A stretch of 64,000 nt of DNA from Paramacrobiotus metropolitanus (lineage: Eukaryota > Tardigrada > Eutardigrada > Parachela > Macrobiotidae), in assembly GCF_019649055.1 (NCBI RefSeq), contig NW_026570223.1:1488001-1552000 (forward strand), read 5' to 3'. A program made the position numbers and the translations under genes. The notes under the pieces are model-generated. The model saw only the letters and a list, made by a program, of their open reading frames with translations. It had not been told where the DNA came from and ran no database searches. Positions 36,203-60,625 of this stretch are shown here, piece by piece (positions within the stretch are counted from its first letter, which is position 1; each line of letters opens with the position of its first letter).

Positions 36203-36782
36203 TGTCGTGTATAAGCGTTCACACCGATTAGGGTTCCATGAACAATCTTTACTCTTCCACGCCTGTAATGCTCAGTCGGTAGGCACTCGTACTCTCAAAC
36301 TGTAACAGATAAACTATGGTGGAAACGACGGACGAGTCAGGAACACGAATCGGGAATCCCTAACGAAGAATCCAACTACAATCTCCGGTCGCGGTTTCTA
36401 CGAGGATCAATAGGAGCTAGGACGATTGTGTCACGAGCAAACCTGTGTACTAAGCGATAATCCGGGAACGACTATGCACTTCCGTAGGAACAAGTATTGC
36501 TGCCTCCTTATTAATACACTTCATAGTCCACAACACAAGGAAATCGTAATTAGAAAGCAGTCTCAGAAGTAAATCTCAGACTACTGATCAGTGACTGCTC
36601 CCGATATTAGTGACAACTCAAACTTATATAGACTCTGCGTTATGACATCATATACACCGCTAGTAAAGAGAACAGCAAATCACAGATGAGATTGACTAGA
36701 TTATCCGTTATGTTGCAGGTGGAAGGCGGACAGTCAGCATCCGTACGTACATCCCGGCGTGTGATCCTACTCCCACACGTCA
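36203..36782 (-). repeat. Left (3') LTR
   Basis: 580 bp, identical to the right LTR except for one missing base in a C/T run near 36507. On the minus strand it starts TGACGTGTGGG at 36782 and ends ACACGACA at 36203. A TATATAAG promoter motif lies at 36623-36630. Open frames seen across it on either strand are not genes. Confidence 0.95.
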
Positions 36783-36793
36783 CCCCCACGAAC
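36783..36793 (-). promoter_or_regulatory. Polypurine tract
   Basis: Immediately inside the 3' LTR the minus strand reads GTTCGTGGGGG, then the LTR start TGACG. This is where plus-strand DNA synthesis would be primed. The tract is short and G-rich. The same 11 bases occur three more times within pol. Confidence 0.75.
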
Positions 36794-37457
36794 GATGCTT
36801 GGCCGTGCCAATATAAACAATCCATCTCGCAACATCCCAGTGCGATTGTGCACTTCCATCCATCCCGATCCCGATCCACCGCACAATCCACGTGTCCATC
36901 CGATGCCCGATGTGACTGTACGCCGCGATTCCAAGTGAGTTAGTGTGTAGAATCCTTGGCGAAATGGCATCCGGAAGTCCACGGGTTTGGCAGGGCGGAG
37001 GTCCAAGGATCCAGGAAGGCGAACTATGAATTACTTGTACTGCATGTGCCGTTTTTAGATGGTGTGGTTGTATATACAGTACACGGCATAAAGCTTTACT
37101 ACTGGTATGATTAAAACTGAAAGATAAAATTACACTCGACTCGATGTTGTTGTACTATGGTTTAAACAAACGGAACCGTGAGATCAACCGGCTGGTATTC
37201 TTACGAATTCTCGAAAACCAGTGACCACAGCAACAAGGTCAATCAACAATAACAAACAAGCTAAGCATAGTGACATAAAGGTCATAAGTGCATAATATGG
37301 GTCAACCAACACTAAAGTAGAAACCAAAAAAAAGCAACAACAACGGAAAGTAATACAGCTCCAACGCATTAAGGTGATATACAAAACAGCACAATAACCA
37401 GTAATACCGGTGAGATCAAAAGGAAACAACAACAGATCATCGAAAGGTTATTCAAGG
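36794..37457. other. Element 3' region; hydrophobic ORF on minus strand
   Basis: A minus-strand open frame at 37432-37184 codes for 82 residues with two strongly hydrophobic stretches (CFFLVSTLVLV and LACLLLLIDLVAVV). It lies directly downstream of the RGG protein ORF, which ends at a potential GTAACC donor, so it could be a 3' exon, an independent small membrane protein or chance. Confidence 0.3.
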
Positions 37458-38258
37458 TTACTTGCCAGCGCTAGGAGCCAATGAGAAGAGACCAGTCATG
37501 CCAGATCCAGACGCAGCTGTAGCAGCATCTAAGCGGCGGGAAACATCCGCAGCCATCTGTCGCCGGCGATCCGCATCCAATTCACGCTGCTGCTGCTGAG
37601 CCAAATAACCAGGCACGAAATTGTGCTCAGCTGAACCAACAGGGCCGGAAGGCGCAGACGGCGCACGTGGACGATCAGCTGGAGAACGGTCACGGGCATC
37701 ACGGATAATCGGCACCTCAGGCAACGGTACAACATTCGGTGGCAAACCCGGAAATTCAGCGTTCTGCTGTACCTGCACTGACGGAATTACAGCCGGAGGA
37801 ATAACAGCGTTCAAGGCTGGCGGGCCAGGTAAATTGACAACAGGGTCGACAGCATGGGGCTGACCTGCAGCCACAGCTCCATTGCCTTGGATCGGATCCT
37901 GCGCATGCGGCGCTTGGTTTCCCGGGGGGTCAACCTCCATGTCTGGGGCGGCAGCTGCCAGTGGAGCAACTGGGTGAGGATCTCCATCAGGTATTTCAAC
38001 AACCTCCGGTGCGCCCAAATGTCGGCCATTACGACGCCAGTGATCGTTTCCGCGACGGAGATTATTGTCTCCAAAATTCCGATGATTTCCTCGGCCGTAC
38101 GGACGAAAGTTGCCACGGAAAGAGCCACGGCCTCCACCCCTTCCTCGGTAATTATAACCGGCATTATACTGCTGTTGGTGCTGGTTATAAGACGAATGAA
38201 AAATGGCGTCTACCAGCTTATCAAAGGCTCGGTTAGGATCAATAGGCGGCATGCCCAA
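37458..38258 (-). CDS. Cargo protein 1: RGG-rich, disordered, 266 residues
   Basis: Starts MGMPPIDPNRAFDKLVDAIF (a short helix), then an Arg/Gly/Asn-rich stretch (RGRGGGRGSFRGNFRPYGRG) typical of RNA-binding RGG boxes. A long Pro/Ala-rich disordered region and a final helix (YLAQQQQRELDADRRRQMA) follow. The RGG stretch resembles the nucleocapsid part of this element's own Gag, so it could be a gag derivative (inference). A good TATA box (GTATAAAACC on the minus strand, 38401-38410) sits about 140 bp upstream of the ATG, implying its own promoter. Confidence 0.65.
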   Translation of the reverse strand: MGMPPIDPNRAFDKLVDAIFHSSYNQHQQQYNAGYNYRGRGGGRGSFRGNFRPYGRGNHRNFGDNNLRRGNDHWRRNGRHLGAPEVVEIPDGDPHPVAPLAAAAPDMEVDPPGNQAPHAQDPIQGNGAVAAGQPHAVDPVVNLPGPPALNAVIPPAVIPSVQVQQNAEFPGLPPNVVPLPEVPIIRDARDRSPADRPRAPSAPSGPVGSAEHNFVPGYLAQQQQRELDADRRRQMAADVSRRLDAATAASGSGMTGLFSLAPSAGK

Positions 38259-38400
38259 ACTAAGGAGAACTACTGACCTTTAACGTTAAAAGTGTATAAA
38301 GAAAAGCGTCAAAATCGCAGACTACAGACTGAAAATCCAACACGCCAGAAGGCCGAAACGAAAAATCCACAATGCCGATTTCTGCACTCTACACGCAGGT

Positions 38401-38410
38401 GGTTTTATAC
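38401..38410 (-). promoter_or_regulatory. TATA box of cargo gene 1
   Basis: Minus strand reads GTATAAAACC in a GC-rich context, about 145 bp upstream of the start codon at 38258. Location and match fit a pol II core promoter; no experimental support. Confidence 0.55.
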
Positions 38411-38765
38411 CGTCTGCCCGCGTGAAAATTTAAAATGCGGCAGATTCCGCAGGTAAGAGAAACGACCAATCAGCGCTTCGCGCTATATCCTTTTAATTCA
38501 ACTTAATCAGGAGATCAGATCTAATCTAGGCACAACGGAAGATTCGGCAGTGACGCTTACACAACTACATAGTACGTACAACGACCAGCTCATTGACTGA
38601 AAGCGTATAAAATGGCGAAATAAAAGTTGAAGAAAATAAGGGACACAATTTCTTCCATCCTCGATAATACAGAGTACAATCGAAAATGTATTAACAAAAG
38701 CGGCTAGCGCAGTACTAAATAAAGGAACAAATCATAGGGAGAATGGCAAAAACAACACTACAGAA

Positions 38766-40296
38766 TTACAACTCTTCCGAATGCGGCTGCTGTTTATCAT
38801 AAACTGCCGGTTCCGCAAATTCGGGCGAATCCTCATGAATAAAAGCTGCAATAGACGGCGCAACGGGTGCAACCGGCTGCATTGACGGCAACGGGTCTAC
38901 ATCCATCTTCTCCAAATCGGACCCATCATCATCATTTTCTTCGTCACTGTCAGCTTCGTCATCCGCGTTTTCGTCAGCAGAGAGCACCGCAGCAGGATCG
39001 TCACTGTCGCCACCATTATCCGAAACCGAGACTTCGCTTTCCGGTGAAGACGAGGACGGTGAGATCTCCTTGTACTTGCGCTTCTGGCCGCGGCTACGCA
39101 GATAATATGGCCCTGCTGAAGTGGACGGTTGGAGCTCCATATTATCCGAATCTCCCGACGCAAGAACCGCTTGTCGTAAAGCTGCGTCCGCCCGCTGATG
39201 TTTTTCCAACTCTTGAAACAGACGGACAAAAACAGGGTTCAAATATAAGTATTGGCGACGCAGTTCAAAGGCGATAGGTGTGGGCAAGGATCGCGTAACG
39301 AGACATAGATCAAATCGATTAATTAAAACTCCGTTGGAATATAAAAAGTGAGACAGGTACAATTCTGAATAACGTGGATGAAAGCGATTAAGGCCAGAGA
39401 AATAGGCCTGAGAAATAACCACATCCTGCTCACCGTTCTTGTCCGCTACAGCCATTCGTGGAAAGACTGGTGAGGACGCACGCTTGCGAGCTGTCTGCTT
39501 GGTCTTATAAATCGGCCGCGGTGCCTTTGGATCGTACGGCACATATAAAATCCCACCACGATTTAAATGCTCTTCATCTAACAGCAATGAAAGCCAATAA
39601 TTAGCTCTACAAATATGCAACAAGGTGACGATAGCTTAATATCAGCTAAATACCATTTAGCGGTGCAATAAAAATTCACAGCAATATCAATTGTAATGTA
39701 GGTAGAGACAACACAAGGAAAACTGGCGAAATAGCATTCGAACATTATCATACAAAATAGGGCACGATGATACGATACATTACTACGAAAATACCTCGCT
39801 TTGCTCGCACAGACGGAGTTTCGGAAGATGATGGTTCTTCCTCAGTAAGATCCGGGGTGCCCAACTGCTTCTCCGCTTGCTTCTGCACTTTCGTCAGAGC
39901 TGGCAAGCAGATCTCAACGTCAGGATCAGCAGGAAATGATCCGCGGCGGTCACGTCGGCGAACCACAGCCGCATTGCGTCGAGCAATAGTTCGGCGCTTT
40001 GCTTCGCGATAAAGATTCTTCAGCGCACCAACTATGGCCTCCGTCCTACTAGTTGAAGGTTTAGGACTCTTTGCTGCAGTCCTACTTCCCGATGGCTCAG
40101 CCGACTGGGCAGAAAACGCTGGCTGCGACGACGTGCGCCGAGAAACTTGTGATCGAGTGACTCTGCTGGAGGAGCGAGCTTCATCGCTGTCAGGCGAATA
40201 ACCAAACGACAAGCTTGACACTTTTCTGCGAGAGCGAGCCACAGGTGTAACCGTTTTACGCGCAGTCGGAGCGGGTTTCTTCGGAGTGGAAGACAT
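38766..40296 (-). CDS. Cargo protein 2: spliced, basic N-terminus, acidic C-terminus, 437 residues
   Basis: Exon 1 is 40296-39795 and exon 2 is 39577-38766. The donor (CGAG/GTATTT) and acceptor (GCTGTTAG) leave matching phases, and the join runs 438 codons including the stop. The first half is Ser/Arg/Lys-rich and disordered (MSSTPKKPAPTARKTVTPVA) with a basic helix EAKRRTIARRNAAVVRRRDR. The second half has a compact part (HPRYSELYLSHFLYSNGVLI), then a basic RSRGQKRKYKE nuclear-localisation-like patch and a very acidic tail. No family recognised; the charge layout suggests a nuclear, nucleic-acid- or histone-binding protein (inference). An intron inside a retrotransposon cargo gene on the genomic RNA strand is notable. 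Confidence 0.65.
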
Positions 40297-40895: not shown

Positions 40896-41966
40896 ATGGC
40901 TGCATTACCCGGAGAACCATCGGCAGAAACAGATGCGATTGAACATGCTCGGTATTGGAAGGAACGGACACGAGAATCTGTGCAGCTTGCCATGGCAGCA
41001 CCATTGACAGAGAACGAGACCGCTACAAGCCGTCGCCAGCTGGCTATGCATACCGCGGCACATGCCTGCATTCTCGAAGCAGATATTACCGGTTTTTCTG
41101 TGGATATTGCCCATATCAAACAGTTCGTACAGGATATGCACACGGACTTTACCGCGGATCGCGTTGAAGTTTTCTTGGAAGACGCCATTAACGCTGGAAT
41201 TCTGCTGAAGAAGATGGCGCGCGACGGGCGCTTCGTTCTGGAAGTCGCGGAAGATGTATACAACAACCGCCAGGTGAAGATCGTGGATACTTACAGCAAG
41301 CTTCGCTGTATAATTCGTGCAATTTTGAACCACGCACGCTACGCCATGAGCCGACCAGAAATTCAGCAATGGGCTACTGGAACATACGATCTTCAGCTCG
41401 AGAACTACGAGTACTGGTTCAACCGCGGCCTACATCGGCTGCTGGAAAAGAAACAAGTCGTGATGGTTTATGGGAATCTGTATGTCCACAGCTGCATTGA
41501 TCTATGGTTGCGGAGTATTCGCGGTTGCTGTCTCTGTGACACTCTGGCTCAAACCATCAGTGAGTATTTTATATGATTACTAATAAGGAATTTGAAAAAG
41601 GGGCACAAACTTTAATTTTACGAGCGTAGTACTGTAAGTTGGTTATGCGAAATTGTACTGGATCTGAAACACACACAATTGCATTTTTGCCCGCGTTTTG
41701 CATAACTACAGTGGGTTGCAGATGTGAAGATGGCCACTCTAAAGGTCGAAAAGAATGGAAAAGAGCTGGAACAGCTGGTAACCGATGCTAGTTTCGGTTA
41801 CGTCGGCGAAGATGTCGAGTTAATTGTCGATGGAGTGATGGAGCGCTTGGACGCCATCGAGCCAGCTAAAAACAACACTATCGGAGGCAATATGCTTGTC
41901 CGCTCTAACAAGGATGCTCGGATCAAGCGAGAGCCAATTATCACATTGAGTCAACTAAAGAGATGA
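40896..41966 (+). CDS. Cargo protein 3 (opposite strand): spliced, helical, 302 residues
   Basis: Exon 1 is 40896-41559 and exon 2 is 41722-41966; GTGAGT donor and TTGCAG acceptor are in phase, giving 303 codons. It starts MAALPGEPSAETDAIEHARY and is largely helical, with FVQDMHTDFTADRVEVFLED and ILLKKMARDGRFVLEVAEDV. Its stop codon overlaps an ATG of a second frame (ATGA at 41963-41966). It is the only cargo gene running against gag-pol, so the element's genomic RNA would not code for it and it needs its own promoter. No family recognised. Confidence 0.65.
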
Positions 41967-42286: not shown

Positions 42287-42609
42287 ATTACGGCGTTTTA
42301 TGCATTTCCGGCGGCTGTTAAATAATTAGTTGGTAGCTTGGCCGGTCTTTCGTATATCCCAGTTGTGTCTTAACTTTGGATCTGAGTTTAATTTTACCAA
42401 TTTTGCTCATATAATTTCTGATTATCCTGGTCGTACAGATCTCATCCTTTGAGTTTAACATGAATTTGTATCCAGAGAATGTAATTGCCGGTCGGTAATA
42501 ATGTTGCCGAAATCAATTAAAGGAATTTTTAGCCGTAGACCTTGTGCATTACTAGGCTGTAGCACATTAATAAGAAAATTAACCGTACTTTGTAATCGGG
42601 ACAAATTTA
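42287..42609. other. Spacer inside the element
   Basis: AT-rich spacer between the plus-strand cargo gene and the tRNA-like array. Nothing further seen. Confidence 0.4.
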
Positions 42610-44650
42610 ATTCCCAAAGATACAACACATCCGCATAAATCAGCGTCGGCAAAGACCAAAAAGAGATAAAAAGAAATTTTATGAGTTACAAAATGGGTCT
42701 TAACGTGGAGTTGAACCTGAGAACTAGCTGCACGGCTACATCCTGTTCTTGCCACTACGCTAGCGTGACTACGCACATTTCCAACGATTATTTAGACACC
42801 GTAAGCGGCATGCGTATATATGATATGACTACATTAAAGCGTTGAGCAATTTATACGTTGCTTTTCCAGTTGAGACACCAAATTCTGTATCCCTCTCTGG
42901 CATAATTTTCGTTCCGGAAATATACACAAATATATATATATTTGTCCGGGAATATACCGACAAAAGAACATGAGAGAAAAAGTGTTCTGACATGCAACAT
43001 GCAACCCTGAGATTATCAAAGAGGTAGTAATTGTAATGAATGGCCATCATTCCAGCCACTGTACTACGAAGTCATTCGATTACAAGTGAAGACACGAGCA
43101 TGCGCACTGTCACTTCAAGAATATACGCATAGATGCGCCGCTCTTCCAATTTAATTCCGCAAGTCCAGGAACTATTGTCAGTGCTTTTCAAAGCGATTAT
43201 AAAAATATAAAACAAGAAAAAGTAGATTTCCCAGAAAATGCAAATAACTGTGAGGGACTTGAACCCGAAACCTTTTAGTTTCCCCGTTGCAGTAGTTCAA
43301 CAGTGCTGAGCGCTACACTACGACATTTTACGACGGTAACTCTTAAGTTACTCAACCGAAGTGATCGTGAAATTATCATCGTCAATGCCAACACATTATT
43401 CTACGTTGTGGTAAAAATATAAACCTAAAAAAAAAGAAGGTTTTCAAAATTCGCAATTTAACTTTTAGGGATTTGAACTCTAGACCTTGAAGCAGTTGGA
43501 GAACGAGAATTCCCGGCCGAGCCACTACGCTACGAGGTACTCTACGTAAAAGCCCCGTTGACTTTGACACCGGAAGCGCCATGTCGTGTATAATATGTGG
43601 CAGCTCATCAGGTGGCTAAATTCAGCGTTCAGGTACAAAAAATACTGCGAGAACAAAAATTTTGTAAGTATAAATTCAAAAGAGTTCGATTAAACGGTGT
43701 GGACTAGCTCCTTCTTGTGGCTCAGCAAGTCAGCCGCTATACTACAAACGAACCCGAGACTCCGATAAGTAATTTCCTTAATTATTTGCTCGGCCACTAC
43801 TCTACGAAATCATTCGACAGAAGGCAGAGAACTGAAACATTACACTTGATATACATACAGCAACAGCATAATGTGCACTTGATTTATAAAGCCGTTCCCT
43901 TGAGGTAATTGCAAAATTCGAATCGCCAGCACGAATATCTTAAGTGAGGTACTAATGAAAATATAAAAACCAAAAAGTAAGTGTTTCGAAATTACGATTT
44001 AATTCTAAGGGGTTTCGAACCCAGCACCTTCCAATTAACCATTGTCGTAGTTCAACAGGTCAAAGCACTATACTACGGCGTTCTACGACGTTAATTTCGA
44101 ATTCCTCCATTGGAAGCAATTTGAGCGTGACACCGGAAATGCACCATATCGTGTATATCGCAATAACGCGGCCGTACGCTATTGCTCATTCATTATGATA
44201 GCAAAATTCAACCCAACAACACCAAAACATTAATATTTTACAGCACAAAAGTATAAAACTGAAAAAGAAGGTTCAACAAAATGTACATTAGTTATCGGGG
44301 TTTTGAACCTAAAGCCTTAAATTAACCGGGTGGTTGCAGAAATTGGCTACTCGACCACTACACTACGAAATCGTTCAACGGAAACTGCATAAACAGGATG
44401 CTAAGGATTGTACATTTGTGCGCCGCTCACCGGTGCTTAGAATAAGATTAGCTCTCAATGTAGAATAAGCCATAATTCACGTTATTTAAGCCAGTGTCTT
44501 AAAATATGAAAGCATAAAATAATAAAACCAAAAAGGAAAGTGTATTTACAAAATCACATTTTTATATGGATTAGAACCTCAGACCAACACGAAGCCAATA
44601 ACGGGAGCCCGTACTATACCAGCAGGGTCGCTCTACGCAAAACACAGGGT
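42610..44650 (-). repeat. Array of ~8 diverged tRNA-like units, ~270-bp spacing
   Basis: On the minus strand each unit has a pol III A box (e.g. TAGCGTAGTGG near 43525) and, about 45 bp on, a B box (e.g. GGTTCAAGTCC near 43260), then an AT-rich tail like CTTTTTGGTTTTTATATTT. B boxes lie near 42712, 43006, 43260, 43474, 44015, 44303 and 44573; a poorer unit lies around 43700-43800. Spacing is near 270 bp or twice that. Units are much diverged, and acceptor stems are not clearly paired, so these are tRNA-derived repeats more than working tRNA genes. Three of them (42795-42819, 43566-43592, 44129-44156) carry a sequence like the element's PBS/LTR junction. Confidence 0.7.
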
Positions 44651-45175
44651 AATTGTAGCGCCTAAAACGTACCTAAAACGTAACAAGAATGCATAATCTG
44701 CGTGTAGGTTACCCGCCCGAGTAGTATACTCCGTGCAAACTAGCACGAACATTAACGGAAGTAGTCTATCGTGTGGTTGCGTGCTACAGAAGCTAAAATT
44801 CGTGGACCAACAGCCGAAACGGCAACTACGTAGATTTTATTAAATTTGCAACCCGCATAATAGCCAACCATTCGAACGAACGGAACAACAAAACGCAAGA
44901 GCCGTATTGTCTACACGGAAAACAGCACAGCTGGAAGTCACATAACAAAACAAAAACTGACACAAACTATATGGACAATCCGAAAGATAAATATCTAAAA
45001 GAGACCCAAGAAGTATGAGATCGCAAAGGGATATACAGCCAGGATACAACTGAGTAATTAACTAGAGTAAAAACTAAGAGCTCGAGAAACTAAAACCCGA
45101 ACATCCCCATGTTTACCATACTGAAGCAACGAAAAGCAGGATCCCAGTCAGAGACTCCATTGAGTCCAAGAAACA
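44651..45175. other. Spacer inside the element
   Basis: About 0.5 kb between the tRNA-like array and the next cargo ORF. No supported gene. Confidence 0.4.
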
Positions 45176-45358
45176 CTACGGGTTCTTCAGCGGAAGCTTG
45201 GAGACGGCCTCCTTGACAGCAATCTTCTTCCGCTCGAAGCGATGTTGGGCTTCAGTGCGTTGAGCCATCTTCTGCGCGACAGATGCTGTCCATTGTGAAA
45301 CACGGTTTTCGAGCGCTTGTTTAGCCGCGTTCTTCTGCTCACGTGCAGGAGGAGTCAT
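45176..45358 (-). CDS. Cargo ORF 4: small helical basic protein, 60 residues
   Basis: From MTPPAREQKNAAKQALENRV to a stop at 45176. Predicted to be one long basic amphipathic helix. A TATA-like element (GTATATATACGC on the minus strand, 45476-45487) lies about 120 bp upstream of this ATG, which favours it over the earlier in-frame start. Too short for a family assignment. Confidence 0.45.
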   Translation of the reverse strand: MTPPAREQKNAAKQALENRVSQWTASVAQKMAQRTEAQHRFERKKIAVKEAVSKLPLKNP

Positions 45359-51700: not shown

Positions 51701-51966
51701 AACGGTAGGACTTTATATTGAAACGTAAACTCTTCACCGACCATCGTTGTTTTACAACGGTCTTCCGGCTTAATCTTTATTTGCCAGAAGCCACTTTTCA
51801 AATCGATCTTACTAAATACAGTAGCTTTATCGAGAGCATTAAGAATGTCATCCACTCTGGGCAAGGGATAGCTACTGCCCATTAATCGTTCATTTAGTTT
51901 ACGAAAATCGACAGTTAGTCGCCGGGATTTATCCTTCTTTTTACTATACAAATAGGACTTCCCCAT
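48757..51966 (-). CDS. pol: Pol, second part: RT, RNase H, integrase
   Basis: 1069 codons in the -1 frame relative to the preceding pol ORF; it opens within the N-terminal motif of RT, so its first ATG is not a real start. RT includes KIDLKSGFWQIKI and the catalytic VFIDDIIVF (residues 116-124). RNase H has VVVDASTIAVGAVL and AYAVICALKKWKHYL. Integrase has its zinc finger (HRLQ..., HLGVLATYKRM, CASCAAC; about residues 545-605) and catalytic core with D in VWAIDVA, D in ITSDRGSNF and E in GLVEKRVGEIKK. A GPY/F-like module (PRWTAGWEIVRPSGPVHYVV) follows, then a disordered tail; there is no chromodomain. Order and motifs are Ty3/Gypsy. Confidence 0.93.
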   Translation of the reverse strand: MGKSYLYSKKKDKSRRLTVDFRKLNERLMGSSYPLPRVDDILNALDKATVFSKIDLKSGFWQIKIKPEDRCKTTMVGEEFTFQYKVLPFGLKDAPSAFQRAMDLTLANMKWRNVLVFIDDIIVFSKNLADHMRDLQEVFLRLQECGWTINPEKTELFVNSITFLGHTVDQFGISTDPEKIQAVKEFGPIKDKKDILRFLGMVGYYRQFIKSFQEIAEPLQKLIPKKVTFEWGTEQCRAVEQLKEALVTAPVLARYDPEALSRVVVDASTIAVGAVLMQCPRNEPTEVPTNWRPIAYLSRKLTETQKRLYFPTELEAYAVICALKKWKHYLSDYQFEVQTDHQALVFLNNMRDAAGRLGRWALYIQQFNTKPVHIPGKENVIADALSRNPGEQPEPDSDDSDIEFDYRQTYPFAGDAAMIECCFAVLERDYADIRFEMMTAEVKAISEENMKAFDADKVQKLITDDKASYWAEEQSRDARIVRWRLLLENKKEKMSEHEQLHLNKFVVKQGVVYYKFELNRKIFYCMYVPVHWRLQFLQDNHDSPLAAHLGVLATYKRMYKYFYWPRMFESVRNYCASCAACLAQNVPATAPAGALQSNPTVPPRLVWAIDVAPALPTTESGNKNIIIAVDYGSKYIVAEAVERNDAATLALFFYRRILTVFGMPIHITSDRGSNFMSEMFRELLALAGVAHAPTASGHQQGNGLVEKRVGEIKKALAKYVNEQQSDWDIFLPALCAAFNSKVVERTGRTPFFMMHGAEMRLPVNNFLPFEEDFVIPAHVFLQQMQRGLGEALDLVNAEEFRHKLKDKIRYDANVSHVIYKAGDQVLVYVLHRKVGKNPSLMPRWTAGWEIVRPSGPVHYVVKSNRRGNVKFDTVHVSRLKPYNFRDVDTILQDEHLPKLLDCVEKECPDEIVEAPAPPPVIPSVDSASSRLDAEYAEYLDKQLEEVPLLKTRSGRVVKPVERFINQNNDKKRKRDPSVDNKKRMTTNGRDPVTLNVSQPGENNSIPPETSASNTPITCNAMEIAPVQQMKIPPVPVVTSEEKIIPAPAWARPLEQFWPQGAITDDTLDK

Positions 51967-54900
51967 GCCGAATTAGTCGGCTCAATGATACCATCCTTAA
52001 TCATTTCTTGTGTTTTAGCCTGGAGCCATTTCCTGTCTTCAAACGATGTGCGATACGGAGGGGTTCGGACCGGTAAACTCGTTCCTGTGTCTACCGAGTG
52101 CTCATAAATGGTACAACATCCGACTGGGCGAGCTTTAGTTGGTAACACTGATTTCGCTTGATAAAAGATCTGTTTTAATTCTTCCTTGCTTGGGCAGATC
52201 TCGCCGACCTTAATTTTAGCAAAGGTTTCTTCCGTCTCAGGATCGACGGCGCTGGGAGTAGGAGGCTGCAACTGCATCGCGGCACATTCATTAATTTTCT
52301 CCGGGGCTGGGACGCCTTTCCCATCACGAGGAATGCCGCAGGGCTCATCATGATAATTCTCTTGGAACTCCGGAGAGTCCATCTGGTACACTGCGTCGAC
52401 AAGTGCGACTTCCCCAAGGTTAGTCTGTTCATTCAAGACTAACGGTTTATCCGATACATTCACAACACAAACCCTGCAATTACCGAATTCATTCAACGTT
52501 AACACGCCGTCCAACAGCACTGCGTTTTTGTTTGTTTCAGGAATCTTGCCTTCATACAAGAATGGTTGGGTGTATAGATACTCATCCTGGAATTCCATAA
52601 ACTGTTCATCCGACATGGCCGTAGTTGCGCGGATAATTCCCTGCGAATGGGGCTGAATTATAACAGGAGAAGCCGGAAAGAGCTCCATTTTAAAACAATC
52701 AATTGGGCCGGGTTCAGGCTCAAAACGGTAAATATCCTGTTCTGCTAAATTTACTTCCGTCTGTGCTTGAGCTTGTTTCAGGTGGGCGTCCCTATACGCC
52801 AATTCGATGACATCCTTGGAATACACGCATGCCGGAATATCTGTGGATTCTCGGACGTCCTGTGACCGTTTCGGTAAGTCTTTAGCCGTCGGTTGTTGTA
52901 AGACCGATGCCGGCTGCATTGTCTCGGCGGACATCTGGCTTGCCGCATCTCTTTCCGCGTATTCGCGTCTAATTCGGCGACTGTAACTGGATTTTTTACG
53001 CCTAGGTGAACTCCTTGCCGAACCTTCCGATAACTGTTCAAAACTTCCCACGGTAGGTTGCAGTGAATTAACACTTGTCGATTCTCTTTCCGCTTTCCGT
53101 TTTTGTATCTCGTTCCAGATTGCCCACTGTTCGTTTATATTTACATCGATGGGGGTATCATATGTTGCCCTGACAGCCGGAGGAAGCAAGTCTGACATTT
53201 GGTCACTAATCAACTTATGCTCCTGCGGTGAGTTGCCAATCAATTGAGAGTTAACTTCCCTTTGCTTCTCTGCCTGCTTATCTTCATAGGAAACCGGGCA
53301 AGGGCCAATATTGATAGGCTTCATGCCGTCCGCAGGAATGAAGTTACCATCCTCGAAATCACCAGCAGGTGCCGGATTATCCACAGAAAAGGTAACTTTA
53401 CGTGTTCCTGTTGCTTTCTGGGCATGCAATTGTTCCTTCCGTTTTGTTAATTCAAAATGTCGCCGATCGTTTACCGAATTACGACATATGTCGCAGTTCT
53501 TTTCGTATCGCTCGATTTCAATAATACAATCTGGCCAGTAAAAGACCTTAATTAGGTACGGATATAATTTTTCGCACCGGCCATATACCTGCTTATGCAC
53601 TAAAATATCGTGAAAGCACGCTATCAGCTTTTGCCGCCATTGGTGTGGCACATATATCCTTGGACATGCGCCAGAGTGATCGGGCACTCTACATAGAATT
53701 CCTTCGCAAATTATCATCCGATTTATTTCGTACTTAGTGTAATTGGTGTTAGCATGCGACGGTTTCTTATACAACTTGTACCACATCCGACTGTCCACAC
53801 ACATCTGTTGAGTTTCACGCCAGAACTGTGGATCCCTAAACCTTCTTTCTGTAGGAAACAAGCCCTTATCCTGCGGCCGGTCCATCGGTGACATCCATCT
53901 TTTTAGCTCTGGATTCCGTGCCATGAAGGACGGGTAGTCGTGGATTTCGTCAACGTCTCTGCGGTCGCGTTCGACAGGTATGACATTTAATAACTTATTG
54001 TCGATACTGAGACATTCCACTGATTTAGAGGATTTTTCTAGGACGCCCATATACAAATAATTTGCTGCAGGATGCTGTTGTAAGACTGCATCCAATGATG
54101 AAATCTGAATCGGAAGTTGTAAGGGATCGTCACCCCCACGAACTTGACGTGAGCCAGAGTTGGGCACAGGACTAACCGACACCGAAGACGAGGTACTCGA
54201 ACTGCATGCCGGCGACGGCTGACAGGTTTTTTCTTGTTTAATTGGCGACTGAACAGGCGCTTGTTTTCTCCCCCACGAACTTGACTGCATGTTATGTACA
54301 ATTATTCCGCCGCCTCCCCCACGAACTTGACTTGGTTCTGGGATTCTTTCCGTCTTAATTTCTTTTTTAATTACAGGTTTGACCGGTTCGTCAGCGAAGG
54401 AAGCCGCTTTCGGGAGATATTGACGAATCATCTCCTGAACTACACTACGGACAAACTCCTCATCACGTTGATCGGATCCTTTCTTCGACGGTGCCGCTTG
54501 TACGGGCACAACTTCCTCAGTTTCCGGTTTGATAGGAGCGTCCGCAACTTTTATCGCCGGTGGCGATTGAACTGGACGAGGCCATGACTGTTTGGCTTTC
54601 TGTAAGTGTAGGATGCAGATCTCCGGATCAGCTTTTGCCAGAATTAAATGTGCGGATTCGTATGGCACAAATTTTGCCTCTTTAGCGACGCCAATTCGCT
54701 CAGTCAGCATCAGTGCTGGGATCAGAGGAGACGGCTTAACTCCCGGGGGAATTAAAGGATCAAAATCATGCGACCGGATGACATCCGACATGAGGTGAGT
54801 TTCACGACGTAAAAACACTGGCGCACCAGGCGGTCTGCGCGAGAGACGCCACGTCATCGTATTCATATCAAGGACAAATGGTTTTGTGGCTAAAAAGTCT

Positions 54901-55880
54901 AAACCTAAAACAACATGATCCCTGTCAAAGGTGGAGCTTACAAGAATTGCGTGCTCAAAGGCCATGCCAAACTCATGGATTGTGACAACAACCGAAAGCG
55001 GCTCGATTAACTGCCTGCCCTGGTAAGCTGTATGTACCACTCTACCTTTAATGTGATCAGGACAGCGGTGAATATTCAATTTTAAATCATTAGCCATTTT
55101 TAACGACATAACGGAAATGCTAGAACCCGTATCCAGCATTGTTTTCACCTTTTGGTAGTTGATATCGATCACCGAGTACCAAGCCTGCGCATCAAGCGTG
55201 GGCAACAGACAGACATGATCCGCCAGTGGATACTGCGAAAAATCCTGTACTTCCATTTTATTACACTGAGGCGTCGGAGAAGACAAACCTGCTGGTAAGT
55301 CTAATTCCATCATATTAATTTGCTGCTGCGGGTTGTTGTATTTTGCCAACAACTCTGCGGACGGTTCATACTGACGAGGAAGTACAAACTGATTTGTACA
55401 ACCTGCTGCCGGATGTAAGCCATGGCAGCGGAAGCAAATTTCAATCCCACGATTTGTTCGCCATTTTTCTTTCTGGATATTCCGCTCGTCAAACGGGGGC
55501 TGGCTACTAGCCTGCTGATTTGGACGATAGTTCTGATTCTGATTTTGTTGACGATTATTATTGTTATTATAACCCCCGCGCTGATTATTGTTTCCACGAT
55601 AATTATTATTTGGGCGGTAATTCCCGCGATTATAACCGCCGTTATTATTATTATTTACAGGACCATCCTGCTGATACTGTGGATCGAAATTCTGGACCGG
55701 CTGCTGAAACTGGGGTTGCATTACCGGCATCATCGGATTCATCATCTGCACAGGAACAGGCATAGCAGCTTGCATCGGAATGGGCTGCTGAAATGTCTGC
55801 GCAAATTGTACCGGATGCTGCTCGACGAATTGTGGATGCTGATATACCGGGACCGGAACAAACTGCGGCTGGGGGTACAC
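51915..55880 (-). CDS. Gag-pol middle: zinc knuckle, protease, extra H2C2 finger, RT start
   Basis: 1321 codons in the +1 frame relative to the Gag ORF; it opens at a non-ATG codon, so it must be reached by a frameshift or be split from Gag by an indel. In order: Asn/Arg/Gly-rich linker, CCHC knuckle (C149-x2-C-x3-H-x4-C161), retropepsin-like protease (MLDTGSSISVMS, catalytic Asp at 250, and VVLGLDFLA), a disordered region, then at about residues 735-805 a second integrase-type H2C2 finger (H...H...YWPD...C-DIC). A beta-rich segment of the sort often found before RT (about 1055-1165) leads to the first RT motif (SAWGSPICIV) close to the stop. Length is well above the family norm. Confidence 0.88.
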   Translation of the reverse strand: MYPQPQFVPVPVYQHPQFVEQHPVQFAQTFQQPIPMQAAMPVPVQMMNPMMPVMQPQFQQPVQNFDPQYQQDGPVNNNNNGGYNRGNYRPNNNYRGNNNQRGGYNNNNNRQQNQNQNYRPNQQASSQPPFDERNIQKEKWRTNRGIEICFRCHGLHPAAGCTNQFVLPRQYEPSAELLAKYNNPQQQINMMELDLPAGLSSPTPQCNKMEVQDFSQYPLADHVCLLPTLDAQAWYSVIDINYQKVKTMLDTGSSISVMSLKMANDLKLNIHRCPDHIKGRVVHTAYQGRQLIEPLSVVVTIHEFGMAFEHAILVSSTFDRDHVVLGLDFLATKPFVLDMNTMTWRLSRRPPGAPVFLRRETHLMSDVIRSHDFDPLIPPGVKPSPLIPALMLTERIGVAKEAKFVPYESAHLILAKADPEICILHLQKAKQSWPRPVQSPPAIKVADAPIKPETEEVVPVQAAPSKKGSDQRDEEFVRSVVQEMIRQYLPKAASFADEPVKPVIKKEIKTERIPEPSQVRGGGGGIIVHNMQSSSWGRKQAPVQSPIKQEKTCQPSPACSSSTSSSVSVSPVPNSGSRQVRGGDDPLQLPIQISSLDAVLQQHPAANYLYMGVLEKSSKSVECLSIDNKLLNVIPVERDRRDVDEIHDYPSFMARNPELKRWMSPMDRPQDKGLFPTERRFRDPQFWRETQQMCVDSRMWYKLYKKPSHANTNYTKYEINRMIICEGILCRVPDHSGACPRIYVPHQWRQKLIACFHDILVHKQVYGRCEKLYPYLIKVFYWPDCIIEIERYEKNCDICRNSVNDRRHFELTKRKEQLHAQKATGTRKVTFSVDNPAPAGDFEDGNFIPADGMKPINIGPCPVSYEDKQAEKQREVNSQLIGNSPQEHKLISDQMSDLLPPAVRATYDTPIDVNINEQWAIWNEIQKRKAERESTSVNSLQPTVGSFEQLSEGSARSSPRRKKSSYSRRIRREYAERDAASQMSAETMQPASVLQQPTAKDLPKRSQDVRESTDIPACVYSKDVIELAYRDAHLKQAQAQTEVNLAEQDIYRFEPEPGPIDCFKMELFPASPVIIQPHSQGIIRATTAMSDEQFMEFQDEYLYTQPFLYEGKIPETNKNAVLLDGVLTLNEFGNCRVCVVNVSDKPLVLNEQTNLGEVALVDAVYQMDSPEFQENYHDEPCGIPRDGKGVPAPEKINECAAMQLQPPTPSAVDPETEETFAKIKVGEICPSKEELKQIFYQAKSVLPTKARPVGCCTIYEHSVDTGTSLPVRTPPYRTSFEDRKWLQAKTQEMIKDGIIEPTNSAWGSPICIVKRRINPGD
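54128..54324 (-). promoter_or_regulatory. Three internal copies of the polypurine tract
   Basis: GTTCGTGGGGG occurs on the minus strand at about 54143, 54280 and 54324. The first copy continues TGACG, so 16 bases match the PPT/LTR junction exactly. Two copies are read as QVRGG and one as SSSWG, meaning the bases are kept while the reading frame differs. They could serve as central polypurine tracts. Confidence 0.6.
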
Positions 55881-58800
55881 TCAGGACAGGCTGCACTGGA
55901 GCCGCGGGATTTTGTTGCTGGGGAATTACCGTCTCAATATATGAACGGGAATATCCACCACGGTTATTCCCATAGTTTCCACGACCTCCGCGAGTTGGGT
56001 AATAATTTCCTCTTTGGGACGAGCCACCGCGGCCGCCTCGATTTTCGTAATTCGAGTTATTATTATTATTACTACCCGCACTTCTTGGCTCTGTAAGTGC
56101 ACTTTTCTGCGTTGATTCCGGAGTTTTCTTATCTTTATTCATTCGTTTCCACAATTTCTCACAATCCTGCAGTTTCTTTTCAAATTCAGAGTAATTCTTC
56201 GGTGATGCGTTGTAGATCTCGCGGAACCATGCCGGTCTATTTTCCTGAACTCCTTCAAGAAGTGCTTCAACTTGTTCCTCATCGGACACCTTGAGCTCTT
56301 CAAACCACGGAAGGAAACTATCCAGGTAGGCACGAACTGGTTCGAAAAAGTCCAGTTTGCGATTGTTCATTTTTCTGCGAATGTCGGCTTTAGAAAGGGA
56401 GCCGTTAAAGTGCTCAATAATTGCCGGTTTAAAGAAATCAGCCCACGATTTACCTTTATTATCTTTCCAGAATTTTTCAAACCATTGAAAGGATGCTCCC
56501 GTAAATGCGCCAGTAACTCTGCGACACGTGACCTCATCGTTCCAATTATTTGTGGTTCGACACTGCTCCACATTCATGAGCCACTTCTGAATCTTTTCGG
56601 GATGTGAATCATCGAAGGTAAGCAGTTTCATACTGCCTTCCGCTTTATCATTTCCTTTTTCAGCCAGCTTCGTGATTAATTCGACAACACATTCTTGAGT
56701 AAGTGCTGCTCTGTCCGATATTTGCGTTTGTTTGATTAACCATTCTTCCAATTGTGCGCTTCTGGAAGTGGATTCATTACTGGCTGTGCTACTAGGACGG
56801 CGGTGTTCGTCATCGGCTAGTATATCATCCATCAGATCATTTTCGATATCAGAACCGTCCCTATTTTCAGGTCTGCGCATCTGGCGATTTACGTCATCAG
56901 ATGCTCTTTTAAATATCTCTTGCCGCAAATCTGCTGACCGGTTTTTCCTCTGTGTAATCGACGCGACTTCTTTTGGAATCTGACTTTCAGAAGACGAACG
57001 GGGCATAGCGTGTGCTTCCGAAAATCCCACCCGTGATTCCTGTCTGGGCTTCCGAAGGATACTAGCCGGATTGGTTACAACAGCTGGAGGCTGTTCATTA
57101 GACGCCGAAAAGTTCTGGGGATCAAACAAGGAAAGGGGAGTGGACCGCAACACATCACCTGTCGCTACCGGCGCCTCCCTTTCAAAATGTCTTTGACCTC
57201 CTCCAAGAGCAAGACCAGAATTTCTGAACTGGAGAAGTTCGTTGCACGCTTGCTTAAATTCATCCTCCAATTTGGTGAGTTGATCTTGTTTTTCGTACCA
57301 TTCATCACGAAGCTGTTTGTTTTCTTCATATAAACGGTTACAATTTTGATCTTTCTCGAAGGCGGCAGCTTGTGCTTCCTTCTTCGCTTTAATCGCCGAT
57401 TCACAATTAGCGCATTTTTTATCATTCTTAATGTCGCTCAGTTCCTTCTGGACTTTGCGATTATTTTCCTTTTCGGCGTCCAATAATCCTTCGAGCCGTT
57501 CAATTTCCTTTTGGGACTGCTCATCCTTTTCCTTGGGAATATGCATTGGGCCAACCGTAGACAATTTGTTAAGCTGTACATTTGCTTTAGTTAGGTCCCG
57601 CTGCAGGGTATCCTCTCTATCTTTAGCGCGCTTCTTTTCATCATTTAAATCCTTAGCAAGCTTTTGAGAGAGGTTTTGCGCATCCGCTAGGTTTTTATTG
57701 GCCAGCTTGTGCGCATCTTTTTCAGCATTTAAATCCCTCTGTGCTTTCGATAATCTCTGATCTAAATCCGCGACTTGCTTCGCCGTATCAGGGAGCGTTG
57801 GTGCTTTAAAACCGTCAATGGTGGCTTTTGCTGTCGACAGCTCCCTCTGAGCTTCCTCTAATTGTTTTTCCAAGTGCCGATTTGCATCCTTTAATCCATC
57901 ATGGTCATTTTTCATATTATCAAATGCGTTTTGTGCATTTTTATTTGCATCTCTTAACCGCGAAAGATTATCGGTCGCGATTCGCAATTCATTTGTCAAG
58001 CGGTCATTTTCGGTTTGTTCCCGTTCAAATTTAATACGCATTTCGTTAAAATCATTCTGGAATTTTAATTTCAGATTACGCTCTTCGTCGACTCGGGTAT
58101 CCAGTGACATGGAGTTTCCCATTTCATCCACTTTTGATTTCGTGGTGGCTATCCATGTCCGCAGACCCTGGAGTAGCACGGGCATCGTCTTCCGGGCGAC
58201 TAATCCCACATCTTGGTCAGTTTGCGTTAGCGCCAATAGCTCGTCGACTTCCTTTGCCTTGGTGAGGAATTCTTCATCTGGTTGCTCAAAGTCTTTCTCC
58301 GAAACAAAAGCATGTAATTTCAATTGAGACGGGTGAAAAGACATTGCGCCACCCATAATGCTTTTCTTTCTTGCAGAAGCTTCCGGAGCTATGTCCGTGT
58401 TTTCACCGAACGCCATGTGAATGGGCGTATCATCCTCTGATCGGCTATCCTCATCCATATCAAAATCTGGAAGAGGTTGTTCCTTGTTAAAGAGGCTTTC
58501 CTCTGACAGTGACTCTACGAGCTTAAGCGGTTCTGTATTTGGTTCACTACGAGTAATTTGTTCTGTATTCTCGGTAGTTTTCGATTTTGCCGCCACCGCT
58601 CGCTTGGGTCGATCGTCAGAAACGGACTCCTTTGGTTTTATTCCAACTTTTGCAGCTGCTTCAAGCGCAATAATGGCCGCTTTTCTACGATCTTCCATAT
58701 TTTTCTTATATTCAGGTAACCACTTGTAAGCTTTTTTAACTGCTTCATTAAACTGTTCATCAGTGACATCCAGATAAGCTTCTGGAATACACCGTTCAGT

Positions 58801-59070
58801 CTCATACCACCCATTGTAGTAAAAGGGTGCCCTTTTGTTTGGGTCCACCGATTTCCCCAACTCCTGGAAATCTACCCACGGCTTACCACAATAAGCTCTG
58901 GAACCTTTGGGTGGTTCCAGATTGAGTGCGAAATACATCAAACCTAACGGTATTTCATCGGGTTTGAATTTAAACCTAGTTTGCGTCGCCGCGCCTTCAT
59001 ATGGACCTTGTATAACCTTATCTTCTGGAACCTGGCTTAGCGCCTTGTTCTTATTTTCTGGATTGGACAT
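55651..59070 (-). CDS. gag: Gag with long coiled coil
   Basis: Starts MSNPENKNKALSQVPEDKVI at 59070 and stays open for 1139 codons, but the last 75 or so, past about 55885, are probably an out-of-frame reading of the next ORF. Residues about 330-640 form a very long charged coiled coil (LRDANKNAQNAFDNMKNDHD...). Residues about 770-1000 are a retrotransposon capsid-type domain (EKIQKWLMNVEQC, GASFQWFEKFWKD, MNNRKLDFFEPVRAYLDSF). An RGG/Asn-rich basic stretch follows (NRGGRGGSSQRGNYYPTRGG). Most Gags of this class lack such an N-terminal extension and are 300-500 residues long. Confidence 0.88.
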   Translation of the reverse strand: MSNPENKNKALSQVPEDKVIQGPYEGAATQTRFKFKPDEIPLGLMYFALNLEPPKGSRAYCGKPWVDFQELGKSVDPNKRAPFYYNGWYETERCIPEAYLDVTDEQFNEAVKKAYKWLPEYKKNMEDRRKAAIIALEAAAKVGIKPKESVSDDRPKRAVAAKSKTTENTEQITRSEPNTEPLKLVESLSEESLFNKEQPLPDFDMDEDSRSEDDTPIHMAFGENTDIAPEASARKKSIMGGAMSFHPSQLKLHAFVSEKDFEQPDEEFLTKAKEVDELLALTQTDQDVGLVARKTMPVLLQGLRTWIATTKSKVDEMGNSMSLDTRVDEERNLKLKFQNDFNEMRIKFEREQTENDRLTNELRIATDNLSRLRDANKNAQNAFDNMKNDHDGLKDANRHLEKQLEEAQRELSTAKATIDGFKAPTLPDTAKQVADLDQRLSKAQRDLNAEKDAHKLANKNLADAQNLSQKLAKDLNDEKKRAKDREDTLQRDLTKANVQLNKLSTVGPMHIPKEKDEQSQKEIERLEGLLDAEKENNRKVQKELSDIKNDKKCANCESAIKAKKEAQAAAFEKDQNCNRLYEENKQLRDEWYEKQDQLTKLEDEFKQACNELLQFRNSGLALGGGQRHFEREAPVATGDVLRSTPLSLFDPQNFSASNEQPPAVVTNPASILRKPRQESRVGFSEAHAMPRSSSESQIPKEVASITQRKNRSADLRQEIFKRASDDVNRQMRRPENRDGSDIENDLMDDILADDEHRRPSSTASNESTSRSAQLEEWLIKQTQISDRAALTQECVVELITKLAEKGNDKAEGSMKLLTFDDSHPEKIQKWLMNVEQCRTTNNWNDEVTCRRVTGAFTGASFQWFEKFWKDNKGKSWADFFKPAIIEHFNGSLSKADIRRKMNNRKLDFFEPVRAYLDSFLPWFEELKVSDEEQVEALLEGVQENRPAWFREIYNASPKNYSEFEKKLQDCEKLWKRMNKDKKTPESTQKSALTEPRSAGSNNNNNSNYENRGGRGGSSQRGNYYPTRGGRGNYGNNRGGYSRSYIETVIPQQQNPAAPVQPVLSVPPAAVCSGPGISASTIRRAASGTICADISAAHSDASCYACSCADDESDDAGNATPVSAAGPEFRSTVSAGWSCK

Positions 59071-60027
59071 TCTTATGGTAAGTACAGTAACTATTGTGCT
59101 ACAGCTTACCGTAACCTTCAGGAATTACAACTGCGCAATTCGATTTCGCTAGACAGTTCTCCTTTGAGGTTTGAACCGTTTCGCGAAAGATTTTGCTCAC
59201 AGCCAACCTTTGCGGTTTGACTGTAAAAATAACTGTTAAAATTACTCGGCTGCACTTTGCGTGCTGTCGTAATTTTACACTTTCGGGTCAATCTTACGAT
59301 ACAAACAGTAACTATTGTGTTACTATTTCTCGTAAAACTCAAGAATTGCAATTGTGCAATTTTAATTTCACTCACAGTCCTCCTTTGAGGTTTGAACTGC
59401 TCAGTGAAAAATTTAACCACAGCCGACCTTTGCGGTTCGGCTGCAAAACTAACTCTTAAAATTACTATGCTGCACTTTGCGTGCTGCCGTAATTTTAACT
59501 TACAGGTCAATCACCGTTTGCCGGTGTTTACCTTTTCCACGAACAACTATCTCTAGCTGCTGATTTTGGCTACCGCTTGCGGCTTGCCTTTATCGAGCTG
59601 CTGGAGATCGTTATCTTACCTGGCCACTGACAGTGGCTCAGAGCTTACTATCTGATTTATCTGCCGGCCAGGTACACTGACACAACAGTTCACAGTTTAT
59701 TCGCCGCGGTTACTGCTTTGCGCAGACAACCCGGAAATTACCCACAAAACACCACTCAATTCACACAGTCGACCTTTAAGGTTTCGACTGTTTCCCTACG
59801 GTCCGATTAAATTAAATTTAAATTTAATTGGCGAGGAAGCTCACCAGTGAGGAAGCTCACGATTGCGAGGAAGCTCGCCAAAATAAATTAACTAGGCCAG
59901 ATCAGGAACGCTGACCTCCTTCGGCGCACCTTTGCGGTTCGACGCCTTTCCTATACGGACCACTTTTACTGTAAATTACCACCAAACTTTCCACCAATAA
60001 TTTTCTGTTACATCGGGAAAATTAAAA
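59071..60027 (-). other. Untranslated leader with hairpins and a tandem duplication
   Basis: About 0.96 kb between PBS and Gag. Two tandem copies of a unit of about 220 bp lie at 59085-59305 and 59306-59512. At least six short hairpins share the loop core CCTTTG(C/A)GGTT: 59156-59176, 59200-59223, 59375-59399, 59420-59443, 59766-59790, 59923-59946. A triple GAGGAAGCTC(A/G)C repeat lies at 59832-59880. No ORF. Likely RNA structure for packaging, dimerisation or translation. Confidence 0.7.
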
Positions 60028-60044
60028 GACACCGGTGGGCGCCA
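60028..60044 (-). promoter_or_regulatory. Primer binding site
   Basis: Directly inside the 5' LTR the minus strand reads TGGCGCCCACCGGTGTC. TGGCGCC is the classic start of a site complementary to a tRNA 3' end; the first nine bases fit tRNA-Lys of animals, and the rest departs from it, so the primer identity is open. Confidence 0.8.
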
Positions 60045-60625
60045 TGTCGTGTATAAGCGTTCACACCGATTAGGGTTCCATGAACAATCTTTACTCTTCC
60101 ACGCCTGTAATGCTCAGTCGGTAGGCACTCGTACTCTCAAACTGTAACAGATAAACTATGGTGGAAACGACGGACGAGTCAGGAACACGAATCGGGAATC
60201 CCTAACGAAGAATCCAACTACAATCTCCGGTCGCGGTTTCTACGAGGATCAATAGGAGCTAGGACGATTGTGTCACGAGCAAACCTGTGTACTAAGCGAT
60301 AATCCGGGAACGACTATGCACTTCCGTAGGAACAAGTATTGCTGCCTCCCTTATTAATACACTTCATAGTCCACAACACAAGGAAATCGTAATTAGAAAG
60401 CAGTCTCAGAAGTAAATCTCAGACTACTGATCAGTGACTGCTCCCGATATTAGTGACAACTCAAACTTATATAGACTCTGCGTTATGACATCATATACAC
60501 CGCTAGTAAAGAGAACAGCAAATCACAGATGAGATTGACTAGATTATCCGTTATGTTGCAGGTGGAAGGCGGACAGTCAGCATCCGTACGTACATCCCGG
60601 CGTGTGATCCTACTCCCACACGTCA
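60045..60625 (-). repeat. Right (5') LTR
   Basis: 581 bp, ending TGTCGTG on the plus strand next to the PBS. A TATATAAG motif lies at 60466-60473 and would drive the element's transcript on the minus strand. One base longer than the left LTR. Confidence 0.95.

What the first reader, a model, noticed from the sequence alone, without database searches (positions are those of the whole stretch)
36203..60625. A 24.4-kb Ty3/Gypsy-type element carrying six or seven extra genes
LTRs, target duplication, PBS and PPT frame a single element that is three to four times the normal size. Beyond integrase it holds about 11 kb with five minus-strand and one plus-strand gene or ORF, none with a recognisable relative, one or two of them with their own TATA boxes. 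Giant LTR elements are known from plants (Ogre) and giant retroelements from rotifers (Terminons), but I know of no animal Gypsy element with this cargo.
Basis: partly seen in the sequence, partly recalled or inferred. Interest (0 to 1): 0.92.

Follow-up and report, generated by a model that had tools for sequence, protein, structure and literature searches.

The report
Giant retrotransposon with conserved extra genes
A 24-kb jumping element of the Ty3/Gypsy retrotransposon kind carries a block of extra genes of unknown function, one of them on the opposite strand, plus a row of tRNA-like units, and dozens of related copies in the same genome keep the same genes in the same order.

Summary
Two LTRs (580 and 581 bp, one 1-bp indel apart) frame 36203-60625, with a 4-bp TTAT duplication, PBS-like and PPT-like stretches; the insertion splits a host coding exon. 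RT and integrase are Ty3/Gypsy. Tested accessory genes are under purifying selection (median dN/dS 0.11-0.30), antisense D included. A second lineage has the same layout with other proteins (X, Y) near A/B; a third shares D, A and G in another order. Between B (or Y) and D lies a tandem array of tRNA-like units with A box, B box and T-run. Pol carries three integrase-type H2C2 zinc motifs. No cargo protein has a significant Pfam match; A and D have none in a 5.8-billion-protein search. Giant animal Gypsy elements are known (Burro), as are antisense genes and arrays after pol in plant Retand: a new variant of a known kind. Gene roles are inferred.

The parts
60045..60625 (-). 5' LTR
36203..36782 (-). 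3' LTR
36199..36202 (.). target duplication TTAT, left copy
60626..60629 (.). target duplication TTAT, right copy
60028..60044 (-). PBS-like stretch
   Evidence: read; primer tRNA not tested
36783..36789 (-). PPT-like G-run
   Evidence: read
55651..59070 (-). gag-like ORF with a coiled-coil stretch
   Evidence: coiled coil below cut-off; no Pfam gag match, gag by position and by eye
51915..55880 (-). ORF with aspartyl protease and, between protease and RT, an extra H2C2-like motif
   Evidence: protease 28.7 bits, cut-off 28.2; H2C2 20.6-23.9 bits, below cut-off 25.5
48757..51966 (-). reverse transcriptase, RNase H, integrase (H2C2 and rve)
48389..48583 (-). third H2C2 motif, after integrase; out of the pol frame in this copy, in frame in 14 of 20 loci compared
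   Evidence: (28.8 bits)
47239..48039 (-). accessory gene A (266 aa; the ORF is open further upstream, to 48222)
   Evidence: dN/dS 0.14 across copies
45891..46679 (-). accessory gene B (262 aa)
45176..45358 (-). small ORF C (60 aa), conservation not tested in the genome
   Evidence: no match in ten second-lineage stretches
42600..44680 (-). tandem array of about eight tRNA-like units (A box, B box, T-run)
40896..41559 (+). antisense gene D, first exon
41722..41966 (+). antisense gene D, second exon (splice inferred)
39795..40296 (-). gene E-F, first exon (E; basic)
38766..39577 (-). gene E-F, second exon (F; acidic; splice inferred)
37458..38252 (-). accessory gene G (264 aa, Arg/Gly-rich N-terminal part)

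Best explanation
The window holds one copy of a family of giant Ty3/Gypsy LTR retrotransposons, without a recognisable envelope gene, that keep an accessory gene block of their own. Shown: an LTR-bounded unit; a conserved order of Gag-Pro-Pol, A, B (X and Y in a second lineage), tRNA-like array, antisense D, E-F, G; purifying selection on the genes tested; recent insertion of this copy. Inferred: the element is transcribed from its LTR as a ~24-kb RNA and copied by its own RT; the accessory genes are read from separate transcripts, at least two of them spliced and D from the opposite strand; their products regulate the element's RNA and chromatin (G as RNA binder, E-F as a basic/acidic nuclear factor, D as a nucleic-acid binder), as regulatory genes do in complex retroviruses; the tRNA-like units are most likely transcribed by RNA polymerase III; copies exchange genes, most simply by template switching.
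For: LTRs, duplication, PBS/PPT-like stretches. Pol is Ty3-like: 308 bits to the Ty3 Gag-Pol structure. Using every row of six genome searches, 93 clusters hold two or more of the six genes: 77 in the order pol-A-B-D-F-G or a subset of it, 14 in a rearranged order, 2 with extra A or A-B copies. Ten LTR pairs of 23.0-24.7 kb, all with cargo inside. Median dN/dS: pol 0.04, A 0.14; X 0.115, Y 0.15, D 0.12, second part of D 0.22, E 0.17, F 0.24, G 0.30. Array pattern 6 times in 2.2 kb against 0.42 in shuffles, and concentrated at the same place in the second lineage. Gene-to-gene differences in dS within one pair of copies.
Against: No transcript data. Gene roles rest on composition and weak hits: D has Linker_histone at 20.7 bits, below the cut-off of 22.4, in 1 of 12 family members. 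The RNA units fold no better than shuffles (z -1.5 to +1.1) and ARAGORN and Rfam see no known RNA there. Counted over whole 10-kb second-lineage stretches, the array pattern is not above the shuffle maximum in most loci (1-6 hits, shuffle means 1.2-2.0, maxima 3-6); the case rests on its position and spacing. The window copy's own gag-pol frames are split, so it need not be autonomous. dS of pol and of A correlate (r 0.69 over 136 pairs), so exchange is not pervasive. B, C and the window lineage's D, E, F, G were not tested for selection.
Confidence: 0.8

Rival explanations
1. The cargo is a nested insertion or an assembly misjoin inside an ordinary Gypsy element.
For: A composition shift lies between gag-pol and cargo (AT skew changes sign).
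Against: The same order recurs in dozens of clusters on many contigs and inside ten LTR pairs of similar length; no terminal repeats bound a sub-unit (only array repeats, short weak direct repeats and one 20-nt 80% inverted pair).
Confidence: 0.02
2. The cargo genes are passengers captured from the host, drifting without a function for the element.
For: Third-position base use of some cargo genes is nearer to host genes than to gag-pol. Ancient capture from a host or virus cannot be excluded.
Against: dN/dS far below 1 across copies and conserved order. Many D rows are single and unassigned (25 single D clusters); none was examined as a possible host gene.
Confidence: 0.06
3. The element is an endogenous virus that moves between cells or hosts with an envelope.
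For: A complex accessory block, recent insertions and very diverged accessory proteins resemble viruses.
Against: No cargo protein examined has a strong membrane segment (highest 19-residue Kyte-Doolittle mean 1.49 over nine proteins or exons) and no envelope match was found in Pfam. Use of another element's envelope cannot be excluded.
Confidence: 0.07
4. The tRNA-like array is a pile of old SINE-like insertions with no role for the element, while the protein genes are functional.
For: Units are strongly diverged, two are weak, no tRNA is called, folds are ordinary.
Against: One orientation, regular spacing (168-171 bp in four second-lineage loci, 214-288 bp in the window), the same place between B or Y and D in two diverged lineages, with A box, B box and T-run kept.
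Confidence: 0.3

Closest known systems
Burro (GYPSM1), giant Gypsy-like LTR elements of planarians (PMC6431247, passages read)
   Same: Ty3/Gypsy-like, more than 20 kb, extra coding capacity, in an invertebrate.
   Different: Burro puts extra domains (ankyrin, BIR, MATH, BCL2-like, Env-like) into a huge polyprotein before pol. Here the extra genes lie after pol as separate genes, one antisense, with none of those domains found by Pfam, plus a tRNA-like array and three H2C2 motifs.
Retand lineage of plant Gypsy elements (PMC11963269, abstract and Discussion read)
   Same: Long region between pol and the 3' LTR with antisense ORFs and tandem-repeat arrays; accessory proteins of unknown function, proposed to regulate the element.
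   Different: Retand pol-3'LTR regions are 2.9-6.6 kb and the described ORFs mostly antisense (often TRP28); here about 12 kb with mostly sense genes, one antisense gene, and units with Pol III-type boxes.
Ogre (plant Gypsy, 16-25 kb; PMC6431247, passages)
   Same: Size class; extra ORFs.
   Different: Ogre's size is largely due to 1.9-6.5 kb LTRs with 1-2 extra ORFs; here the LTRs are 0.58 kb.
Bdelloid rotifer LTR elements with captured ORF3 (PMC5408684, outline and abstract)
   Same: Animal LTR elements that carry additional ORFs.
   Different: One extra ORF type per lineage, with recognisable enzymes or envelope; here several orphan genes.
Cassandra / Helenus / Ajax (PMC10886601, abstract and passages)
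   Same: LTR elements with small-RNA-gene-like Pol III promoters.
   Different: Those are short non-autonomous elements with the promoter in the LTR; here a tandem array inside a coding element.
Complex retroviruses with antisense or Pol III-transcribed genes (HTLV antisense genes: Retand Discussion; bovine leukemia virus Pol III miRNAs: abstract start in a search listing)
   Same: Functional analogy: accessory regulators, an antisense gene, Pol III units.
   Different: Analogy only; no sequence relation tested, no envelope, no hairpin support.

Membership tests
Ty3/Gypsy (Metaviridae) LTR element | RT-RNase H followed by integrase, Ty3-like | tested here: met
   Pfam order RVT_1, RNase H, H2C2, rve; best solved relative is Ty3 Gag-Pol
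Ty3/Gypsy (Metaviridae) LTR element | LTRs with TG..CA ends and a short target duplication | tested here: met
   4-bp TTAT
Ty3/Gypsy (Metaviridae) LTR element | tRNA primer-binding site | tested here: inconclusive
   PBS-like stretch in place; tRNA not matched
Burro | internal region over 20 kb, Gypsy-like pol | tested here: met
   internal region 36783-60044, about 23.3 kb
Burro | ankyrin, BIR, MATH, BCL2 or Env-like domains in a giant ORF before RT | tested here: not met
   Pfam scan of gag, ORF2 and pol lists none; remote homology by HHpred not tested
Retand | antisense ORFs and tandem array between pol and 3' LTR | tested here: met
   gene D and the array
Retand | TRP28 domain; plant Retand RT lineage | not tested
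   no TRP28 profile or Retand RT set was at hand
Retrovirus with envelope | env glycoprotein gene | tested here: not met
   no Pfam envelope match and no strong membrane segment in nine proteins or exons
Helenus-type TRIM | tRNA-like sequence in the LTR, non-autonomous | tested here: not met
   tRNA-like units lie in the internal region of an element with pol
Terminon | Penelope-like RT, no LTR integrase | tested here: not met
   Ty3-type RT with integrase

The most novel reading that the evidence does not exclude
A lineage of Gypsy retrotransposons has evolved a genome plan like that of a complex virus: a Gag-Pro-Pol polyprotein with three integrase-type zinc motifs, five or more separately expressed accessory proteins (some spliced, one antisense), a Pol III-transcribed cluster of tRNA-like small RNAs, and gene-by-gene exchange between co-resident lineages, all on a ~24-kb RNA.
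Probability: 0.4. Interest if true: 0.92.

Novelty: new variant of a known kind. Interest (0 to 1): 0.8.

Why it matters
A retrotransposon family keeps, under purifying selection, a multi-gene accessory block and a tRNA-like array through two diverged lineages, with a rearranged set in a third, all in one genome. Dozens of copies make it directly testable what each gene does for the element, whether one LTR element can run sense and antisense Pol II genes and Pol III units together, and how a 24-kb genome is copied and packaged by a Ty3-type machinery.

Tried and rejected
Nested insertion or misjoin: rejected. miRNA hairpins in the tRNA-like units: no support. ARAGORN found no tRNA in the window; Rfam gave one weak match far from the array. 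B related to X or Y of the second lineage: no support by profile comparison. PDB searches with D, B, A, ORF2 and gag gave no significant match; the D-family profile's best hit, E 0.022 to an adhesin, is read as chance. PHROGs with six cargo proteins: nothing significant. IMG/VR scans with pol, B, ORF2 and the D family, and one GTDB scan with pol: no relative. Phage records: no match to pol. One search compared loci in mixed orientation and is discarded. One search clustered a hand-picked part of the rows (pol 43 of 45, A 70 of 101, B 60 of 71, D 69 of 123, F 66 of 93, G 70 of 91; some strong rows were left out); one search repeats it with all 524 rows, and only its cluster counts are used; the placing of clusters inside LTR pairs uses the clusters. 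Host identity: not settled. The three capped protein searches went to A, pol and D; B, C, E, F and G were not searched in that database.
Full report
Observation. Two LTRs (36203-36782, 60045-60625) differ by one indel in 581 bp. TTAT lies on both outer sides; a PBS-like and a PPT-like stretch lie inside. Joining only the host flanks, without the element and one TTAT, gives one open frame across the junction, so the element sits inside what looks like a host coding exon. With LTRs this alike the insertion is recent. A solo LTR of the family (87% identical, ATAA on both sides) lies at 27774-28347.

Core genes. The minus strand holds a long gag-like ORF, an ORF with an aspartyl protease, and RT-RNase H-integrase. 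Pol scores 308 bits to the Ty3 Gag-Pol structure. Of 8000 candidates scored in the protein database 5316 pass 1e-10; the 120 listed align at 29-42% identity. On a tree of those 120 the window's tip is the second longest (1.12 against a median of 0.28). Pol is Ty3/Gypsy without a close relative among the listed ones. An unusual trait is three H2C2 integrase-type zinc motifs: one between protease and RT (20.6-23.9 bits, below the cut-off of 25.5), the normal one (60.8 bits) and one after integrase (28.8 bits). The three align pairwise (E 4e-7, 5e-7 and 2e-10, each for a single comparison). In 14 of 20 loci compared (the window is one of the other six) the frame at the end of pol runs on to codon 1182-1194, through the third motif; the motif is seen below the cut-off (17.5-24.3 bits) in 6 of 6 such tails scanned. 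In the window copy the gag-pol frames are split; 6 of 45 pol matches lie, without stops, in open frames longer than 3,200 aa, so uninterrupted frames exist in the family.

Cargo genes. The 11.6 kb after pol hold 5 ATG ORFs of 200 aa or more where 200 shuffles average none. First codon positions are richer in G+C than second ones, as in coding sequence, in six of seven cargo ORFs; E is the exception (0.57 against 0.62). Two introns with GT..AG and matching phase are inferred, in E-F and in D. In two of ten second-lineage stretches the two parts of D form one uninterrupted ORF (393 and 387 aa), which fits their being one gene.

Copies. The window is C3:1488001-1552000 of a genome of 169.8 Mb in 533 contigs. 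Matching rows: pol 45 (43 of 2106 candidates scored), A 101, B 71, D 123, F 93, G 91; these are lower bounds. Using all 524 rows, 135 clusters form. 42 hold one gene only (25 D, 8 G, 6 A, 3 F). Of the 93 others, 77 are in the order pol-A-B-D-F-G or a subset of it (28 with all six genes, 20 with all but pol), 14 show D-A or D-A-G (third lineage), one has A-B twice and one has two extra A fragments before pol. D is antisense to its neighbours, except at two decayed-looking places (C90:188074 and C272:39192). All 43 clusters with a listed pol also hold cargo. The 40 scored LTR matches (of 199 candidates) give 13 neighbouring same-strand pairs: ten of 23.0-24.7 kb outer length, all ten with cargo inside; one of 31.4 kb (the A-B duplication); one of 44.6 kb with cargo; one of 7.9 kb without. 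Target duplications were checked only for the window copy and the solo LTR.

Selection. Ten stretches of a second lineage were fetched (pol 75-82% identical to the window in the four loci where it is listed). D and G match in 10 of 10 by tblastn, F in 7 of 10, in the window's order, with long ORFs at the places of X, Y, E and F; X is found again in that lineage by its own search (15 rows). Some ORFs are short or broken there: my length filters keep X in 5, Y in 10, D in 8, its second part in 7 (two of the other three read through), E in 10, F in 9 and G in 10 of 10 loci. Nei-Gojobori median dN/dS, pairs in range of all pairs: X 0.115 (6 of 10), Y 0.15 (21 of 45), second part of D 0.22 (5 of 21), D 0.12 (7 of 28), E 0.17 (12 of 45), F 0.24 (11 of 36), G 0.30 (33 of 45). 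Among the window's closer copies: pol 0.04 (118 of 190 pairs), A 0.14 (109 of 136). The accessory proteins change faster than pol but stay constrained.

Mosaicism. For one pair of copies synonymous distance can differ between genes: L001/L011 pol 0.91, A 0.29; L009/L015 pol 0.41, A 0.07; L010/L015 pol 0.32, A 0.88. For L023/L026: X 0.54 (95% 0.41-0.72), F 0.34 (0.24-0.44), G 0.036 (0.010-0.066). Identities to the window also jump within single copies, e.g. A 94, B 51, D 93, F 74, G 93 on C213. Against pervasive exchange, pol and A distances correlate over 136 pairs (r 0.69). Template switching is the simplest reading; extra constraint on G's synonymous sites is an alternative for that gene.

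tRNA-like array. Between B and D, on the sense strand, lie about eight diverged units with an A-box-like word, a B-box-like word and a T-run (box names recalled). The combined pattern occurs 6 times in 2.2 kb against 0.42 in shuffles (maximum 3), once on the other strand, and no more often than in shuffles in 36 kb of host flank. Two of the eight units (4 and 7) were added by eye and align weakly with most others; the best pairs reach z 21.7. The stretch is matched by 148 pieces in the genome, most of them on contigs that hold other copies. In the second lineage the pattern is concentrated between Y and D: 28 hits in 12.5 kb against 12 in the other 87.5 kb, one antisense, with repeat lags of 168-171 bp in the four loci examined; the window's own array shows no sharp lag. 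Counted per 10-kb locus the totals are mostly not above the shuffle maximum. Folds are ordinary. Transcription is not shown.

Third lineage. D-like genes at 26-30% identity to the window's, 15 of them near full length and 94-100% alike, lie in another repeated family. In six fetched stretches an A-like match follows D in 6 of 6 and a G-like match in 4 of 6. Upstream of one such block lie a stretch similar to the H2C2 region of the window's ORF2 (E 9e-19) and two stretches similar to another part of ORF2; RT was not reached. D, A and G thus travel with Gypsy-type sequence in a second arrangement.

What it is. A giant Ty3/Gypsy family with a conserved accessory block and no recognisable envelope gene. 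The mechanism proposed is regulation in the manner of complex retroviruses, by nuclear and RNA-binding proteins, plus Pol III-type RNA units. Layout and selection are shown; expression and roles are inferred.

Literature. Read in passages: PMC6431247 (Burro, Ogre, Terminons), PMC10886601 (with abstract), PMC11410931 (one passage on Burro), PMC11071193 (tardigrade repeats; its passages say nothing of giant elements), PMC6338049 (nothing used). Abstract or outline: PMC5408684. Abstract and Discussion: PMC11963269. The original Burro paper is not held. Seven paper searches listed no title or abstract start that describes this combination; most subscription papers are not held, so this is weak evidence of absence.

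Noticed in passing
window 27774-28347: Solo LTR of the same family, opposite orientation, 87% identical, with ATAA on both sides: an older insertion reduced by LTR recombination.
   Followed up: partly
window 36053-36202 and 60630-61083: The insertion splits an open frame that continues across the empty site, apparently a hydrophobic membrane protein of the host; no Pfam match to the downstream part.
   Followed up: partly
window 32926-34271 and 62736-63761: Two diverged copies (68-79% in pieces) of a region with a VWA-domain ORF lie on either side of the element, which suits an undisturbed neighbourhood of duplicated genes.
   Followed up: no
window 3722-13745: Short stretches (53-94 bp, 79-87% identical) recur at about 4-kb spacing, as if a ~4-kb unit had been triplicated.
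   Followed up: no
window 59084-59512: A 221-bp repeat in two copies in the leader between 5' LTR and gag.
   Followed up: no
G000:C50:452505-491246: A copy with A and B duplicated in tandem, framed by identical-scoring LTRs 31.4 kb apart, with a third LTR 7.9 kb further on.
   Followed up: no
L031, L032, L034-L038: A further repeated element family carrying D, A-like and G-like genes in another order, with ORF2-like sequence upstream.
   Followed up: partly
gene G in L023, L025, L026: Synonymous distance in G is about ten times lower than in X of the same copies: recent exchange, or constraint on G's RNA near the 3' LTR.
   Followed up: partly
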